Below, in pieces: positions 12,778 to 19,063 of a stretch of 38,902 nt of DNA. The notes below the pieces were generated by a model. It was given only the letters and a program-made list of their open reading frames with translations, had not been told where the DNA came from and ran no database searches. How positions within the stretch are numbered: the stretch's first letter is position 1; each line of letters opens with the position of its first letter. The position numbers and the translations under genes are program-made. Origin of the DNA: Actinomycetota bacterium (lineage in GTDB: Bacteria > Actinomycetota > Actinomycetes > Nanopelagicales > Nanopelagicaceae); assembly GCA_005787645.1 (NCBI GenBank), contig SYAM01000082.1, forward strand, positions 1 through 38,902, written 5' to 3'.

Positions 12778-13772
12778 TGGATTTTCTCTTCATCACTCAA
12801 CAATCATTGAGCGCAGCAATCGGCGTTAACACCATTATATTTGCGCTTGCTGCAATCGGATTGAATATGCACTTTGGATACACGGGCCTGCTCAACTTCG
12901 GTCAAGCAGGATTCCTTGCGGTTGGCGCCTATAGCGTCGCGGTCGCCGTGGTCTCGTTCGATATCTCTCTCTGGATTGCGCTCTTGATTGGCATCGGCAA
13001 CTCCATCATTCTTGCGCTGCTCCTGGGTATTCCCACACTTCGCTTGCGCGCTGACTACCTCGCTATCGTCACTATTGCTGCAGGTGAAATCATCAGGCAA
13101 GTGGCCCGCTCAGCGACTTTCAATGACACTCTCGGTGGATCCGACGGCATTACTGGGAAGTTCGGAAAAGAATTCTTCGACCTCAACCCTTTCACCGAAG
13201 GCTTAGATCTCCCCTTCCTTCGCTATACCCCCAATGACCTATGGGTGGTTATCGTTGGATGGATTGTCGTAGCGTTCATTCTTATCTTGATGTGGCTATT
13301 AGTGAATTCGCCTTGGGGACGGCTTCTCAAAGCCATTCGTGAAGATGAGGATGCTGTTCGCTCATTAGGTAAAAACGTCTATCTCTACAAAATCCAATCC
13401 TTGATTGCTGGTGGCGTGATTGGCTCAATCGGTGGTTTTGTCTATGCGCTCTCTCGCCAATCGGTACAGCCTGACAACTACGGAACTGCGCTCACCTTCT
13501 TTGCTTACACCGTGCTAATTCTTGGTGGCGCCGCGCGAGTGATGGCCCCCATCGCAGGTGCCATCATCTTCTGGTTCTTACTCGTCTTTGTCGAGCAACT
13601 ACTACGTCAAGCCGTCTCTGCTGGGTACATCCCGGAGTGGCTAATTGGTGTCAATCAAGTAGGTCAAATCAGGTTCATGCTCGTTGGTCTTGGGTTGATG
13701 CTGTTGATGATATTCAGGCCGCAAGGAATCTTCGGTGATCGAAAGGAGTTGGCTCTTGATGCCCGCGCATAG
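12777..13772 (+). CDS. livM: Branched-chain amino acid ABC transporter permease (LivM-type)
   Basis: 331 aa; ALAAIGLNMHFGYTGLLNFGQAGFLAVGAY; TAATG overlap with livH. Confidence 0.93.
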   Translation: MDFLFITQQSLSAAIGVNTIIFALAAIGLNMHFGYTGLLNFGQAGFLAVGAYSVAVAVVSFDISLWIALLIGIGNSIILALLLGIPTLRLRADYLAIVTIAAGEIIRQVARSATFNDTLGGSDGITGKFGKEFFDLNPFTEGLDLPFLRYTPNDLWVVIVGWIVVAFILILMWLLVNSPWGRLLKAIREDEDAVRSLGKNVYLYKIQSLIAGGVIGSIGGFVYALSRQSVQPDNYGTALTFFAYTVLILGGAARVMAPIAGAIIFWFLLVFVEQLLRQAVSAGYIPEWLIGVNQVGQIRFMLVGLGLMLLMIFRPQGIFGDRKELALDARA

Positions 13773-14628
13773 TTCTCGTTTCAAAGAGCAAGCGCTTGCA
13801 GCGTTTGCATCAGTTACTCCGACTCCTGGAGTGGCAAAACCCGATCCCATCATCGTTGCCGACAAGGTCACAAGAAAATTTGGTGGACTAACAGCTGTCA
13901 ATGTTGATCACGTTGAGATCCAACGCGGCTCGATCACAGCGTTAATCGGCCCAAATGGCGCAGGTAAGACCACCTTCTTCAACTTAATTACTGGTTTTGA
14001 CTCGGTGAACGAAGGGAGTTGGACTCTCAACGGCGAGCAGATTGTGGGTACTCCTCCTCATAAAGTGGCGCGAAAAGGAATGGTCCGCACCTTTCAATTA
14101 ACGAAGGCGCTTTATCGTCTCTCGGTGCTCGATAACATGCGTCTTGCTGCGACAGGACAACGTGGTGAATCCTTCATTCGCGGCCTCTTCCCTTTCATTT
14201 GGCGCAGACAAGAGAGCGCAATCACTGCTCAAGCAGAAGAGTTACTCACTCGATTTCAATTAATTGACAAAAAGTCTGACTTTGCTGCAGCGCTATCTGG
14301 TGGCCAACGCAAACTCCTTGAAATGGCCCGCGCGCTCATGGTCAAACCAGAGATTGTCATGCTCGATGAACCGATGGCAGGAGTCAACCCAGCGCTCAAA
14401 CAATCTCTCCTCGGTCATATCAAAGACCTCCGCGATGAAGGCATGACTGTTCTTTTTGTAGAACATGACATGGATATGGTCCGCGATATCAGCGATTGGG
14501 TGATTGTGATGGCTGAGGGCAAAATTGTTGCCGAAGGCACTCCAGAGAGCGTGATGGGAAATCAGGCGGTCATTGATGCCTACCTGGGAGCCCACCATGA
14601 TCTCTCTCTCGATGAGGGCCCCAGATGA
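13759..14628 (+). CDS. livG: Branched-chain amino acid ABC transporter ATP-binding protein (LivG-type)
   Basis: GPNGAGKTTFFNLITGF Walker A, LSGGQRKLLEMARALM, VMLDEPMAGVNP. Start set at ATG 13759 (MPAHSSRF) with a GAAAGGAG RBS about 10 nt upstream, rather than ORF start 13735. Confidence 0.93.
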   Translation: MPAHSSRFKEQALAAFASVTPTPGVAKPDPIIVADKVTRKFGGLTAVNVDHVEIQRGSITALIGPNGAGKTTFFNLITGFDSVNEGSWTLNGEQIVGTPPHKVARKGMVRTFQLTKALYRLSVLDNMRLAATGQRGESFIRGLFPFIWRRQESAITAQAEELLTRFQLIDKKSDFAAALSGGQRKLLEMARALMVKPEIVMLDEPMAGVNPALKQSLLGHIKDLRDEGMTVLFVEHDMDMVRDISDWVIVMAEGKIVAEGTPESVMGNQAVIDAYLGAHHDLSLDEGPR

Positions 14629-14644
14629 AGATCGGTAATAGGCT

Positions 14645-15391
14645 ATGAATTCACTCAACACCACCGGCACACCGTTAGTTGAGGCGGCGGGAATCATCGC
14701 TGGTTATCTGCCTGGTGTGAATATCCTCAATGGTTGCGACCTTTATGCCAATGAAGGTGATTTGGTAGGCATCATCGGACCAAATGGCGCCGGCAAATCC
14801 ACTCTTCTTAAATCTCTCTTTGGTTTAGTAAAAGTTCGAGATGGCATCGTTCGCCTTAAAGGCGAAGATGTCACCAATCTACGCGCTGACCAACTCGTCC
14901 GCGCCGGAATTGGCTTCGTGCCGCAAACCAATAACATCTTCCCATCGCTCACTATTGAAGAGAATCTACAAATGGGGGCCTACCAACGTCCGGATAGTTT
15001 CAATGAGCGTTTTGATTTCGTCACCAACCTCTTCCCCACCCTGGGCAGCCGTCGCAAACAACGAGCGGGTTCACTCTCGGGTGGAGAGCGCCAAATGGTT
15101 GCCATGGGGCGTGCGTTGATGATGGCGCCGAGCGTTCTCTTACTCGATGAACCAAGCGCTGGCCTTTCGCCTGCGCTACAAGATGAGGTTTTCGTGCGAG
15201 TACGCGAGATCAATAAAACTGGCGTGACCGTAATAATGGTCGAGCAGAATGCTCGCCGTTGCCTTCAGATTGTGGATCGTGGATATGTTCTTGATCAAGG
15301 GCGCAACGCTTATACCGGTACTGGCCGCTCGTTGGCTAACGATCCAAAGGTTATTGAATTGTACCTTGGCACTCTCGCTAAAAATAATTAG
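14645..15391 (+). CDS. livF: Branched-chain amino acid ABC transporter ATP-binding protein (LivF-type)
   Basis: 248 aa; GPNGAGKSTLLKSLFGLV, LSGGERQMVAMGRALM, VLLLDEPSAGLSPAL. Confidence 0.93.
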   Translation: MNSLNTTGTPLVEAAGIIAGYLPGVNILNGCDLYANEGDLVGIIGPNGAGKSTLLKSLFGLVKVRDGIVRLKGEDVTNLRADQLVRAGIGFVPQTNNIFPSLTIEENLQMGAYQRPDSFNERFDFVTNLFPTLGSRRKQRAGSLSGGERQMVAMGRALMMAPSVLLLDEPSAGLSPALQDEVFVRVREINKTGVTVIMVEQNARRCLQIVDRGYVLDQGRNAYTGTGRSLANDPKVIELYLGTLAKNN

Positions 15392-15406
15392 TTGCTCATA
15401 AATAGA

Positions 15407-15438
15407 TTAGGGCCGATCTCTAGCGAGACCGGCCCTAA
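15407..15438. terminator. Bidirectional hairpin between convergent livF and livK
   Basis: TTAGGGCCGATCTC-TAGC-GAGACCGGCCCTAA: 14-bp stem with one mismatch and a 4-nt loop, in the convergent intergenic gap; no strong T-tract. Confidence 0.8.
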
Positions 15439-15461
15439 CTAGTTAACTAGCCGAGTTATTA

Positions 15462-16736
15462 CTACTGTGCAGGAACTGCTCCAGTGATGAACTCTTCAGC
15501 CTTTGGTGCGAACTTGTCATTCGCTGAGTACTCGTAAACGCCCATGGTGGCCACCGATGGGTCGCCATTTGCGTCGAACTCGATTGGACCAGAGACACCG
15601 TCATAATCAATGTCGGTGCCTGCTGCAATCAAATCTAAGCACTCCTTGTAGCTGGTGCACTTGGTTCCACCCGAGGAGACAGATGCCAAGTTAGCAGCGA
15701 TGGTCTTGCCATCGGTGCCCTTGCCCTGCTCTGCAGCGAGTGCAATCAAGATGACTGCATCGTATGACTCAGGAGCGTACGAGAAGTCGGTCAACTTAGG
15801 ATCAACTTCGAGTAGGCGCTTCTGTAGTTCGTCGCTGGTGAGAACGCCTGGAAGAGTCGCCTTGACGCCCTTCATGGTGTTATTTGGTAGATCCTTGTAA
15901 GCCTGGCTGGAGAGGTTACCGTCAACGAGGTAAGTCTTTACCTTGTTTGGACCAATGCCCTGCTTGATTAATTCGGTAAGAACCTTCACTGACTCGTCGA
16001 AACCGATGAGCGCAATTGCATCAGGCTTTGCAGCCTTCACCTTTGCGACATCAGCGGAGAATTCTGCAGCCTGTGGGTTGTAGACAACCTGAGTTGAGGT
16101 TCCGGAGAATGCAGCGATGCCGTACTTGGCAAGACCGTTTCCGTATGCGTCATCAAGGTTCATGAAGACAGCATTTGTTGCACCATTCTTCGCCATCAAT
16201 TGGCCAAGAACTGCACCTTGGAAGGTATCTGGTGGAGCAGTACGGAAATAGAGGCCATTATCTGCATAGGTGGTGAGATCTGGTGAGGTATTCGCTGGGG
16301 AGAAGTGAACAATTCCAGCGCCGGTGATCTTGTCGATAACGGTGAGTGATACACCAGAGGATGCCGCACCCACGATTGCACCTACGCCAGCTGCGATATG
16401 TGAATCAGCAGTCTGTTGAGCGATATCGGTGCTGGTATCTCCAGAGTCGCCACGAATGTGCTCAACTGGTTGACCAAGAACTCCACCTGCATCGTTGATG
16501 TCCTTGACAGCAAGGTCAACGCCTGCGAACTCTGGTGGCCCGAGGAATGCGAGGTTACCTGTCTCAGGAAGTAGTGAACCGATCTTGAGCGGACCAGTTG
16601 AAGCAGGAGCTGCCTCTTCTGTGCTCTCTGTTGCGGTCTCTTCTGAAGCTGTGTCGGATGAGGACGAGCAGCCTGCAAGAACGAGCGTCGCTACAGCGAA
16701 GGCGGTTACAACCTTCCACTTGTATGACTTTTGCAT
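15462..16736 (-). CDS. livK: Branched-chain amino acid ABC transporter substrate-binding lipoprotein
   Basis: Start set at ATG 16736 (MQKSYKWKVVTAFAVATLVLAGCSSSSDT) with lipobox LVLAGC and RBS GAAAGGG. The body (LKIGSLLPETGNLAFLGPPEFAGVDLAVKDINDAGGVLGQPV) is type 1 periplasmic-binding. Confidence 0.93.
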   Translation of the reverse strand: MQKSYKWKVVTAFAVATLVLAGCSSSSDTASEETATESTEEAAPASTGPLKIGSLLPETGNLAFLGPPEFAGVDLAVKDINDAGGVLGQPVEHIRGDSGDTSTDIAQQTADSHIAAGVGAIVGAASSGVSLTVIDKITGAGIVHFSPANTSPDLTTYADNGLYFRTAPPDTFQGAVLGQLMAKNGATNAVFMNLDDAYGNGLAKYGIAAFSGTSTQVVYNPQAAEFSADVAKVKAAKPDAIALIGFDESVKVLTELIKQGIGPNKVKTYLVDGNLSSQAYKDLPNNTMKGVKATLPGVLTSDELQKRLLEVDPKLTDFSYAPESYDAVILIALAAEQGKGTDGKTIAANLASVSSGGTKCTSYKECLDLIAAGTDIDYDGVSGPIEFDANGDPSVATMGVYEYSANDKFAPKAEEFITGAVPAQ

Positions 16737-16741
16737 TATTA

Positions 16742-16771
16742 CCCTTTCGATTGCTATCGATTGCTTTCGAT
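16742..16771 (-). repeat. Three tandem 10-bp direct repeats upstream of livK
   Basis: Minus strand: ATCGAAAGCA / ATCGATAGCA / ATCGAAAGGG; the third copy overlaps the livK Shine-Dalgarno. Confidence 0.85.
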
Positions 16772-16778
16772 GATTTCT

Positions 16779-16790
16779 AGAAGTACTTCT
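16779..16790. promoter_or_regulatory. Perfect 12-bp palindrome AGAAGTACTTCT upstream of livK (candidate operator)
   Basis: Read directly; lies in the pdtaR-livK intergenic region, about 43 nt upstream of the livK ATG. Confidence 0.5.
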
Positions 16791-16935
16791 GATCACTACA
16801 AAACTTCTCCCGCAGATCAAGGTGATTCGAGGGCACAGTAGCGTCAAGTAATCCCTGAGTATGCCAAAAGAAGAGAAAAGTTGTAAGTCGAGGAGTCCGC
16901 TAAATTGGCCGAGTGTGGGTAATTTTCTCGGCTAA

Positions 16936-17526
16936 TTAGCCCTTCTGAGCCGAGATTAGCGCCTGAGCGACCTCGACCATCGAAACCCGCTTATCCATGG
17001 CCCCGCGCTGAATCCAGGTGAAAGCCTCCCCTTCGCTCATTCCATGTGCACTCATCAAAATACCTTTTGCCCGCTCAACGATTTTTCGCGCCTCGAGTTT
17101 ACCCTCGAGCGTGGCTATCTCCCCTTCGAGAATGGTCCGCTCGAAGAAGCGAGAACGGGCGACCTCGATTGCAGGAATCAGATCACTAATCGTGAAAGGT
17201 TTTACCAAGTAAGCCATCACACCGGCGTTATTTGCTCGCTCAATCAACTCTCTCTGACTAAAGGCAGTCAACATCACTATCGGAAGATAACCGCGCAATT
17301 CTTCGGCTGCAGTAATGCCATCTTTAACTGGCATCTTCACATCAAAGAGCGCCACATCAGGTTGTTGCTCTCGGACCAATCGAACGGCATCTTCACCGTT
17401 GGCTGCTTCACCAACTACCTCATAACCTTCGCGAGCGAGCATTTCTACCAAGTCCATCCGGATGAGCGCCTCATCTTCAGCAACCACAATTCGCAACGGT
17501 GAAGGTTTCGATGGCGAGATGGTCAT
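16936..17526 (-). CDS. pdtaR: ANTAR-domain response regulator (PdtaR/Rv1626-type transcription antiterminator)
   Basis: 196 aa; receiver LRIVVAEDEALIRMDLVEMLAREGYEVVGEA, DVKMPVKDGI; C-terminal ANTAR LEARKIVERAKGILMSAHGMSEGEAFTWIQRGAMDKR. Confidence 0.95.
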   Translation of the reverse strand: MTISPSKPSPLRIVVAEDEALIRMDLVEMLAREGYEVVGEAANGEDAVRLVREQQPDVALFDVKMPVKDGITAAEELRGYLPIVMLTAFSQRELIERANNAGVMAYLVKPFTISDLIPAIEVARSRFFERTILEGEIATLEGKLEARKIVERAKGILMSAHGMSEGEAFTWIQRGAMDKRVSMVEVAQALISAQKG

Positions 17527-17527
17527 G

Positions 17528-17600
17528 TGCCCCGAGTCGGATTCGAACCGACACTATGCAGTGTTTGAGACTGCCCTCTCTACCGTTGGAGTACCGAGGC
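17528..17600 (-). tRNA. tRNA with anticodon CAA (nominally Leu) but class I architecture with a 5-nt variable loop; CCA not encoded
   Basis: GCCTCGG-TA-CTC-CAACGGTAGA-GAG-G-GCAGT-CTCAAAC-ACTGC-ATAGT-GTCGG-TTCGAAT-CCGAC-TCGGGGC-A. The acceptor, anticodon and T stems all pair; U8, G18G19, U33, TTCGAAT and discriminator A are present. Anticodon at 17565-17567. Confidence 0.88.
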
Positions 17601-17614
17601 GTGGTGTAGAGAGT

Positions 17615-19063
17615 TTACCTATAGGCCGCAGCGGCGCCAGCCACGGCATCTCCGATCCGATGTACGCGCATGGCATTGGTCGAGCCAGGGATTCCTGGAG
17701 GGCTACCGGCAACAATCACAATATGTTCGCCAATAGCTCCGCGCCCAGTATCAAGAAGAGCAGAATCGATCTGTTTGACCATCTCGTCGGTATGTTTCGC
17801 CGGTGGAATCACTATCGGTTCTACTCCCCAGGAGAGCGCGAGTTGATGGGCAGTACTTATCTCTGGGGTCAGGGCGAGTATGGGAATTACCGAGCGCAAA
17901 CGTGACATTCGACGGGCCGAATCTCCACTCTGTGTAAAAGCAACGAGAAATTGCGCACCGACGACTGCTCCCACTTCAGCGGCCGCTTTCGTAATTGCGC
18001 CCGATTTTGTATGGGGATTATGGCGCAGCTGGGCCACCTCTGAGAGCGCCTTCTCCTCTGTCTTCGCAATTATCTTAGACATCATGGAGACCGCTTCAAG
18101 TGGAAACTTCCCCACGCTCGTCTCACCAGAGAGCATCAGCGCATCTGCCCCATCGAGAATCGCATTTGCGCAATCGGTCGCTTCCGCCCGAGTGGGCGAA
18201 GGATTGCTCATCATCGATTCCAACATTTGGGTCGCGACAATCACTGGTTTGGCATTCTCCCTGGCCGCCGCGATGCATCGCTTCTGAACCAATGGCACCT
18301 CTTCTATTGGAAGTTCCACACCCAGATCACCACGTGCCACCATCAAACCATCGAATGCGTTTACAATCTCATCGAGATTAGAGACTGCTTGTGGTTTCTC
18401 AATTTTCGCAATAACAGGAATGCGAACATCCATCCGATTCATGACAGCATGAACGCCCTCGATGTCGGAACCGTGACGAACAAAAGAGAGCGCAATCAGA
18501 TCCACGCCTGCGGTGAGCGCCCATTCCAAATCAGAGAGATCCTTCTCCGAGAGGGCAGGAACCGAAAGTGAAGAGCCTGGAGCGTTTATTCCTTTATTGC
18601 TACTTATTGCCCCACCATTTCTCACGATGGTGTAAATATCTTCGCCGCTAATCTTTGATATCTGAAGTGCAATCTTGCCATCGTCGATAAGTAAAGTATC
18701 TCCAGCGGTACAATCTGCTGCCAATCCCTTGTACGTAGTGGAGGCTCGTGAACTATCACCGACGATTTCTTGAGTGGTGATGACGAAACTTGCTCCCTCT
18801 TGAAGAAAGTGCTCACCTTCAACAAGTTTTCCCAGACGAATCTTGGGCCCTTGGAGATCTGCAAGAACTGCTACGTACGCAGCGCGCTTTCTAGATTCAT
18901 TCCGCACGTTAGTGAGCAATTCTTCATGTTGAACGCGAGTGCCATGTGAAAGATTCAATCGTGCAACATTCATTCCAGCATCGATCAATTGACCGATGCG
19001 CATCTCACTCGAGGTTGCTGGCCCTAAGGTGCAGACGATTTTTGCACGTCGTTGACCGCTCAT
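17615..19063 (-). CDS. pyk: Pyruvate kinase
   Basis: 482 aa; RRAKIVCTLGPATSS, VMVARGDLGVELP, MLSGETSVGKFPLEAV. Confidence 0.97.
   Translation of the reverse strand: MSGQRRAKIVCTLGPATSSEMRIGQLIDAGMNVARLNLSHGTRVQHEELLTNVRNESRKRAAYVAVLADLQGPKIRLGKLVEGEHFLQEGASFVITTQEIVGDSSRASTTYKGLAADCTAGDTLLIDDGKIALQISKISGEDIYTIVRNGGAISSNKGINAPGSSLSVPALSEKDLSDLEWALTAGVDLIALSFVRHGSDIEGVHAVMNRMDVRIPVIAKIEKPQAVSNLDEIVNAFDGLMVARGDLGVELPIEEVPLVQKRCIAAARENAKPVIVATQMLESMMSNPSPTRAEATDCANAILDGADALMLSGETSVGKFPLEAVSMMSKIIAKTEEKALSEVAQLRHNPHTKSGAITKAAAEVGAVVGAQFLVAFTQSGDSARRMSRLRSVIPILALTPEISTAHQLALSWGVEPIVIPPAKHTDEMVKQIDSALLDTGRGAIGEHIVIVAGSPPGIPGSTNAMRVHRIGDAVAGAAAAYR

What the first reader, a model, noticed from the sequence alone, without database searches (positions are those of the whole stretch)
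17528..17600. Structurally intact class I tRNA with the Leu anticodon CAA
Seen in sequence: the cloverleaf has 7-bp acceptor, 3-bp D (plus a C.A mismatch), 5-bp anticodon and 5-bp T stems, loop CTCAAAC (anticodon CAA), discriminator A, and only a 5-nt variable loop (ATAGT). A15-U48 Levitt pairing is possible. Established: bacterial tRNA-Leu species normally have a long class II variable arm. A CAA-anticodon tRNA without one is either a non-canonical Leu tRNA, one charged with another amino acid on UUG codons, or a tRNA-like RNA with a regulatory rather than decoding role.
Basis: partly seen in the sequence, partly recalled or inferred. Interest (0 to 1): 0.8.

Follow-up and report, generated by a model that had tools for sequence, protein, structure and literature searches.

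The report
Leucine tRNA lacking its long arm
This is a real leucine transfer RNA that has lost the long side arm textbooks say every bacterial leucine tRNA carries; it is the only tRNA matching the common codon UUG in its lineage, and related Actinobacteria (including, by published gene length, the tuberculosis bacterium) have swapped short-arm and long-arm versions at the same chromosomal spot several times.

Summary
A complete class I cloverleaf with anticodon CAA lies at 17600-17528 (minus strand), between pyk and an ANTAR response-regulator gene. It is not a pseudogene or regulatory relic. It is the ordinary UUG-reading tRNA-Leu of its lineage, in an unusual short-arm form. A complete genome of the same genus has 47 tRNA matches. 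Its only UUR-Leu tRNAs are class I: this CAA gene and a 73-nt UAA gene. Its CUN-Leu tRNAs are class II. Across 59 class-level genomes the patterns found class I or class II for each UUR isoacceptor, never both (62 versus 23 calls, 0 overlaps, about 13 expected). Class I copies keep every tested E. coli leucine identity element (A73, U8/A14, A15-U48 or G15-C48, G18G19/A20a D-loop) but carry a coordinated core change (A9, C13, mostly A46). Class II Leu(CAA) genes occupy the same locus beside the response regulator in relatives, so the class has switched in place: five families hold both states. Each of nine genomes checked has one LeuRS. UUG is 1.9% of window codons and aligns with CUN leucine elsewhere. 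Charging is inferred, not measured. In this clade the regulator's AUG follows the tRNA with one nucleotide between, suggesting a leaderless mRNA made by tRNA 3' processing.

The parts
17528..17600 (-). class I tRNA-Leu(CAA), 73 nt; CCA not encoded (A73 followed by C-ATG)
17565..17567 (-). anticodon CAA (positions 34-36), loop CTCAAAC
17553..17557 (-). 5-nt variable loop ATAGT (positions 44-48), where class II tRNA-Leu has a 14-15 nt arm in the relatives compared
17579..17592 (-). core signature of the class I form: A9 (17592), C13 (17588), A14/A15 (17587-17586) and A22 (17579); A9 and C13 are invariant in 76 distinct class I copies, against G9 (39/40) and G or A13 (40/40) in class II
17528..17528 (-). 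discriminator A73
17612..17617 (-). -10-like box TAAACT overlapping the pyk stop codon; a TANNNT box 11-20 nt upstream of the tRNA occurs in 37 of 52 distinct family upstreams (shuffled mean 9.3, max 17)
16936..17526 (-). ANTAR-domain response regulator (PF00072 + PF03861); its ATG starts 2 nt after A73
17615..19063 (-). pyruvate kinase (PF00224, PF02887), upstream neighbour, conserved in synteny

Best explanation
This is a functional, leucine-accepting elongator tRNA and the sole tRNA with the CAA anticodon for UUG in its lineage. It is built on a short-arm (class I) frame instead of the usual class II frame. Inferred mechanism: LeuRS recognises A73, the U8-A14 and 15-48 core and the G18G19/A20a D-loop, all of which are kept. 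The long arm is therefore dispensable for leucylation. It was lost together with a matched rearrangement of the core (G9 to A9, R13 to C13, usually A46) that lets a 5-nt variable loop pack. Shown here: real conserved cloverleaf, sole gene, mutual exclusion with the class II form, in-place class switching at the response-regulator locus, retained identity elements, use of UUG at leucine positions, a single LeuRS in each of nine genomes. Inferred: charging by LeuRS, core packing, the route of switching. In this clade the tRNA probably also supplies the promoter and, through 3' processing, the 5' end of a leaderless mRNA for the ANTAR regulator.
For: Complete same-genus genome G004: all 47 RF00005 matches read; Leu tRNAs are UAG and GAG (class II) plus UAA and CAA (both 73 nt, class I), with no class II UUR gene. 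The own genome shows the same four. In 59 class-level genomes the two patterns gave, for CAA, 36 class I only, 14 class II only, 0 both; for UAA, 26, 9 and 0; permutation mean overlap 13.4, none of 10,000 at 0. Complete or near-complete genomes show mosaics: I CAA + II UAA (Streptomyces bldA type), I UAA + II CAA, or both I. Class II Leu(CAA) sits beside the same response-regulator gene in 13 of 14 genomes examined. One LeuRS in each of nine genomes. UUG is 219 codons, 19.1 per 1000, of the window; in pyk and the regulator 62% of aligned high-GC codons are CUN. Identity elements are kept in all or nearly all of 76 distinct copies. In E. coli, A73, A15-U48, G18G19 and A20a matter and the long arm does not (PMC9976931).
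Against: No charging, expression or proteomic data were available. The stated leucine rules come from E. coli and other models, not from an actinobacterial LeuRS. In archaea the arm is part of leucine identity (PMC9976931). Class II and some class I genes that depart from the search patterns are missed, so a number of genomes have no call for one isoacceptor. UUG could in part be read by the UAA tRNA through wobble.
Confidence: 0.93

Rival explanations
1. The tRNA is charged with another amino acid (a class I identity such as Met, Ile or Arg) and UUG is ambiguous or recoded.
For: A class I frame with a CAA anticodon is normally not leucine; [quoted passage not shown] The nearest other tRNAs by the R1 model are class I tRNAs such as Arg(CCT) and Asn.
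Against: UUG is common and aligns with leucine codons elsewhere. The tRNA is the only CAA gene. The D-loop, 15-48 pair and A73 follow tRNA-Leu. Class II Leu(CAA) takes its place at the same locus in relatives.
Confidence: 0.03
2. A tRNA-like regulatory RNA or pseudo-tRNA that does not decode.
For: Tight conserved linkage to an ANTAR (RNA-binding) regulator, with AUG 2 nt after the tRNA.
Against: It is the sole CAA tRNA, its stems covary, and it is mutually exclusive with the class II decoder. A regulatory role in addition to decoding is not excluded.
Confidence: 0.02
3. On origin only: the short form arose by many independent deletions of the long arm, rather than by spread, gene conversion or differential loss of one ancient class I tRNA-Leu lineage.
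For: The same locus holds both forms in five families, and 9 label changes are needed on the regulator tree, at least 5 forced by its starred branches.
Against: All 76 class I copies, CAA and UAA alike, share A9 and C13, and 74 share A46, a signature that repeated simple deletions would not give. Within families the two forms also differ in acceptor and D stems, as replacement would.
Confidence: 0.25

Closest known systems
Bacterial class II tRNA-Leu(CAA), including the actinobacterial copies at the same locus
   Same: Anticodon, A73, U8/A14, A15-U48, D-loop type ARN-GG-NAG, genomic locus beside the ANTAR regulator
   Different: 14-15 nt variable arm in the actinobacterial copies compared; G9 and G or A13 instead of A9 and C13; different acceptor stems within the same family
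Mycobacterium tuberculosis leuV (Leu-CAA, 74 bp) and leuX (Leu-TAA, 74 bp), listed in PMC9336784
   Same: Gene length fits class I; the published T1 fragment ACUCAAAACCCG matches class I sequences found here in family f4
   Different: Listed without comment on structure in the passages read; it is a substrate of MiaA in vitro
Mammalian mitochondrial tRNA-Leu(UUR)
   Same: Class I frame, reads UUR, leucine identity from A73 and A14 without a long arm (PMC9976931)
   Different: Organellar, floppy, charged by mitochondrial LeuRS; not a relative of this gene by anything tested here
Streptomyces bldA tRNA-Leu(UAA)
   Same: A UUR-Leu isoacceptor in Actinobacteria
   Different: Class II; in G061 it coexists with a class I Leu(CAA), each serving its own codon
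[quoted passage not shown]
   Same: CAA anticodon on a class I body
   Different: Mutated tRNA-Met, very low expression, recent; ours is conserved, Leu-like and the only gene for its codon

Membership tests
tRNA (RF00005) | cloverleaf matching the covariance model above its gathering score | tested here: met
   52.1 bits against 29; 98.5% of pair cells standard across 25 homologues
tRNA-Leu (functional family) | discriminator A73 | tested here: met
   A in 76 of 76 distinct class I copies
tRNA-Leu (functional family) | U8-A14 and 15-48 hinge, G18G19 and A20a in the D-loop | tested here: met
   U8 and A14 76/76; A15/U48 70 and G15/C48 6; D-loop motif 75/76; 15-48 covaries
tRNA-Leu (functional family) | reads a codon used for leucine | tested here: met
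   UUG positions align with Leu CUN in high-GC relatives (62%), like CUU (54%) and CUC (76%); sole CAA gene
tRNA-Leu (functional family) | aminoacylated by LeuRS | not testable with these tools
   one LeuRS per genome found; charging not measurable here
class II tRNA | variable arm of about 10 nt or more | tested here: not met
   5 nt; the 25 aligned homologues all carry a short variable region. It is therefore not filed under class II
pseudo-tRNA | decay of stems, loss of conservation in relatives | tested here: not met
   stems intact and covarying; 24 of 25 family genomes keep it

The most novel reading that the evidence does not exclude
Actinobacteria contain an ancient, separately evolved short-arm lineage of tRNA-Leu with its own core (A9, C13.A22, A46). 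It repeatedly replaces the class II gene in place, isoacceptor by isoacceptor. In the window's clade it also serves as a 5' processing module: tRNA 3'-end cleavage releases a leaderless mRNA for an ANTAR regulator, tying regulator supply to tRNA-Leu(UUG) maturation.
Probability: 0.4. Interest if true: 0.75.

Novelty: new variant of a known kind. Interest (0 to 1): 0.6.

Why it matters
Reviews treat the long arm as a shared feature of all cytosolic tRNA-Leu (PMC9976931, PMC7609411). Here a phylum that includes Streptomyces and mycobacteria decodes UUG and/or UUA with tRNAs that lack it. These are natural experiments on how LeuRS chooses its tRNA, how SerRS and LeuRS substrates stay apart, and how an essential tRNA can change structural class repeatedly without loss of identity. 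Because M. tuberculosis leuV and leuX have the class I length, the point bears on how tRNA-targeting toxins and LeuRS inhibitors discriminate there.

Tried and rejected
A first class I pattern was mis-spaced, did not match the window itself, and was discarded. Corrected patterns were checked on held loci before use. Using a locus id as the 'of' centre for other phyla failed. A negative control on 26 genomes whose Leu(CAA) is class II, mostly Pseudomonadota, gave 0 hits, with 2 of 2 actinobacterial positives. The phylum sample with R1 (34 of 100) used strict filters and 49 candidates per genome, so it is a lower bound. The apparent coding of flanks antisense to the Streptomyces tRNA was judged an artefact of the T-loop and not pursued. 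A promoter inside the tRNA for the regulator was considered and found unlikely: there is no TANNNT at the right distance in the acceptor and T arms (by reading). A tree of the tRNAs themselves was not built (about 70 columns); the regulator protein was used instead, with many weak branches.

Full report
WHAT IS THERE. On the minus strand, 17600 to 17528, lies the sequence GCCTCGG-TA-CTC-C-AACGGTAGA-GAG-G-GCAGT-CTCAAAC-ACTGC-ATAGT-GTCGG-TTCGAAT-CCGAC-TCGGGGC-A. Rfam scores it as a tRNA at 52.1 bits, and ARAGORN names it Leu(CAA). It lies 14 nt after the stop of pyruvate kinase and directly before an ANTAR response regulator.

IT IS NOT A RELIC. The same gene is found in 24 of 25 genomes of the family sampled. 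An alignment of 25 distinct homologues shows 98.5% standard pairs and 12 pairs with changes on both sides, against a shuffled mean of 6.6 and no shuffle of 500 reaching the observed value. Even the tertiary 15-48 pair moves from A-U to G-C together.

IT IS THE ONLY READER WITH THIS ANTICODON. In the complete genome G004 (same genus; its contig length equals that of record CP015606, IMCC26077) I read all 47 RF00005 matches. Leucine tRNAs are UAG and GAG, both class II, and UAA and CAA, both 73 nt and class I. The own MAG shows the same four. So the window's tRNA is half of a matched pair: in this lineage both UUR-leucine tRNAs are short.

IT REPLACES THE CLASS II FORM. Two patterns, checked on known loci, were run on the same 59 class-level genomes. 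For CAA, 36 genomes matched class I, 14 class II and none both. For UAA the counts were 26, 9 and 0. Label shuffling expects 13.4 double calls, and none of 10,000 shuffles gave zero. Inventories of individual genomes show every combination: both short; short CAA with long UAA (Streptomyces, where the long one is the bldA type); short UAA with long CAA. One genome in another class also has a short Leu(UAG) (L248).

THE SWITCH HAPPENS IN PLACE. Class I Leu(CAA) is neighbour to the ANTAR regulator, often with pyk close by, across the phylum. In 13 of 14 genomes with class II Leu(CAA), that gene sits beside the same regulator or within about 1.6 kb of it. Five families (f4, f17, f18, f60, f61) hold both forms at this locus, and within Streptomycetaceae genus g34 G159 has the long form while G061 and G131 have the short one. 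On a tree of 118 regulator proteins the label changes at least 9 times, at least 5 forced by strongly supported branches. The tree is weak in many places; the within-family cases do not depend on it.

HOW IT CAN STILL BE LEUCINE. Published E. coli leucine identity is A73, the 15-48 trans-Levitt pair, G18G19 and A20a. The long arm and anticodon are not needed, and truncated tRNAs without the arm are still charged (PMC9976931). All of these are kept in the 76 distinct class I sequences, with one exception in the D-loop motif. What differs is coordinated: A9 and C13 in 76 of 76, A46 in 74 of 76, against G9 in 39 of 40 and G or A at 13 in 40 of 40 class II copies. I infer that this is a second way to pack the core without the arm. 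Each of nine genomes checked has one LeuRS matching the bacterial model (in the window's own MAG it is cut by a contig end). UUG makes up 19.1 per 1000 codons of the window. In pyk and the regulator, UUG positions align with CUN leucine codons of high-GC relatives in 62% of cells, between the values for CUU and CUC.

A SECOND ROLE IN THIS CLADE. In 37 of 56 loci with the same orientation, 34 of them distinct by the first 60 nt, the in-frame start codon of the regulator begins exactly two nucleotides after A73 (A73-C-AUG; one GUG), although the N-terminal lengths differ. A -10-like box stands 11-20 nt before the tRNA in 37 of 52 distinct upstreams, against 9.3 in shuffles. There is no room for a leader. 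The simplest reading is one tRNA-regulator transcript, cut at the tRNA 3' end to give a leaderless mRNA. Leaderless mRNAs are common in the actinobacterium Propionibacterium acnes, where endonucleolytic cuts at tRNA 3' ends were also mapped (PMC3848588). This step is inferred.

WHAT IS KNOWN. M. tuberculosis leuV (CAA) and leuX (TAA) are listed at 74 bp, and leuV transcripts are MiaA substrates in vitro (PMC9336784). Another paper notes that Leu-2, -3 and -5 of M. tuberculosis have long arms, which leaves two without (PMC11541572). A short-loop Leu(TAG) in one mycobacterial tRNA cluster was noted (PMC6582537). I found no paper that states that the chromosomal UUR tRNA-Leu of Actinobacteria are class I; the reviews read describe tRNA-Leu as class II. 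The library is open-access only, so this is not proof of novelty.

VERDICT. Observation confirmed; the tRNA is a bona fide leucine isoacceptor in a short-arm form, widespread in its phylum but unremarked in the literature searched. Charging remains the one step to be measured.

Noticed in passing
window 17524-17528 (and 36 other loci, e.g. L031, L057, L143): The regulator's start codon lies exactly 2 nt after the tRNA's last base (A73-C-AUG) in 37 of 56 co-directional loci: a probable leaderless mRNA made by tRNA 3' processing.
   Followed up: partly
L014 / L182 (own genome C69:1417-1489; G004): The genome's tRNA-Leu(UAA) is also class I (73 nt), with the same A9/C13 core.
   Followed up: yes
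L248 (G068:C1:2880360-2880433): A class I tRNA-Leu with anticodon UAG in another class of the phylum, so the short form is not limited to UUR; G137 has a similar-scoring hit.
   Followed up: no
L172 (G004:C1:190600-194850): Three degenerate tRNA-like copies, two with 8-nt anticodon loops (aacg, cacg), in tandem in IMCC26077; they look like decayed or mobile-element tRNAs.
   Followed up: no
L026-L029 and other Streptomyces loci, both flanks of the tRNA: Short CCTT(C/G)NATTCNAAGG-like motifs flank the class I Leu(CAA) gene on both sides in many Streptomyces; possible terminator or recombination site.
   Followed up: no
L026 and similar Streptomyces class I Leu(CAA): An A31.C39 mismatch at the loop end of the anticodon stem is conserved in many Streptomyces copies.
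   Followed up: no
window 13735-16847: Two ABC-transporter ATPase genes, one with the branched-chain amino-acid C-terminal domain, and a periplasmic binding protein gene lie next to the regulator and tRNA-Leu; whether this is conserved was not checked.
   Followed up: no
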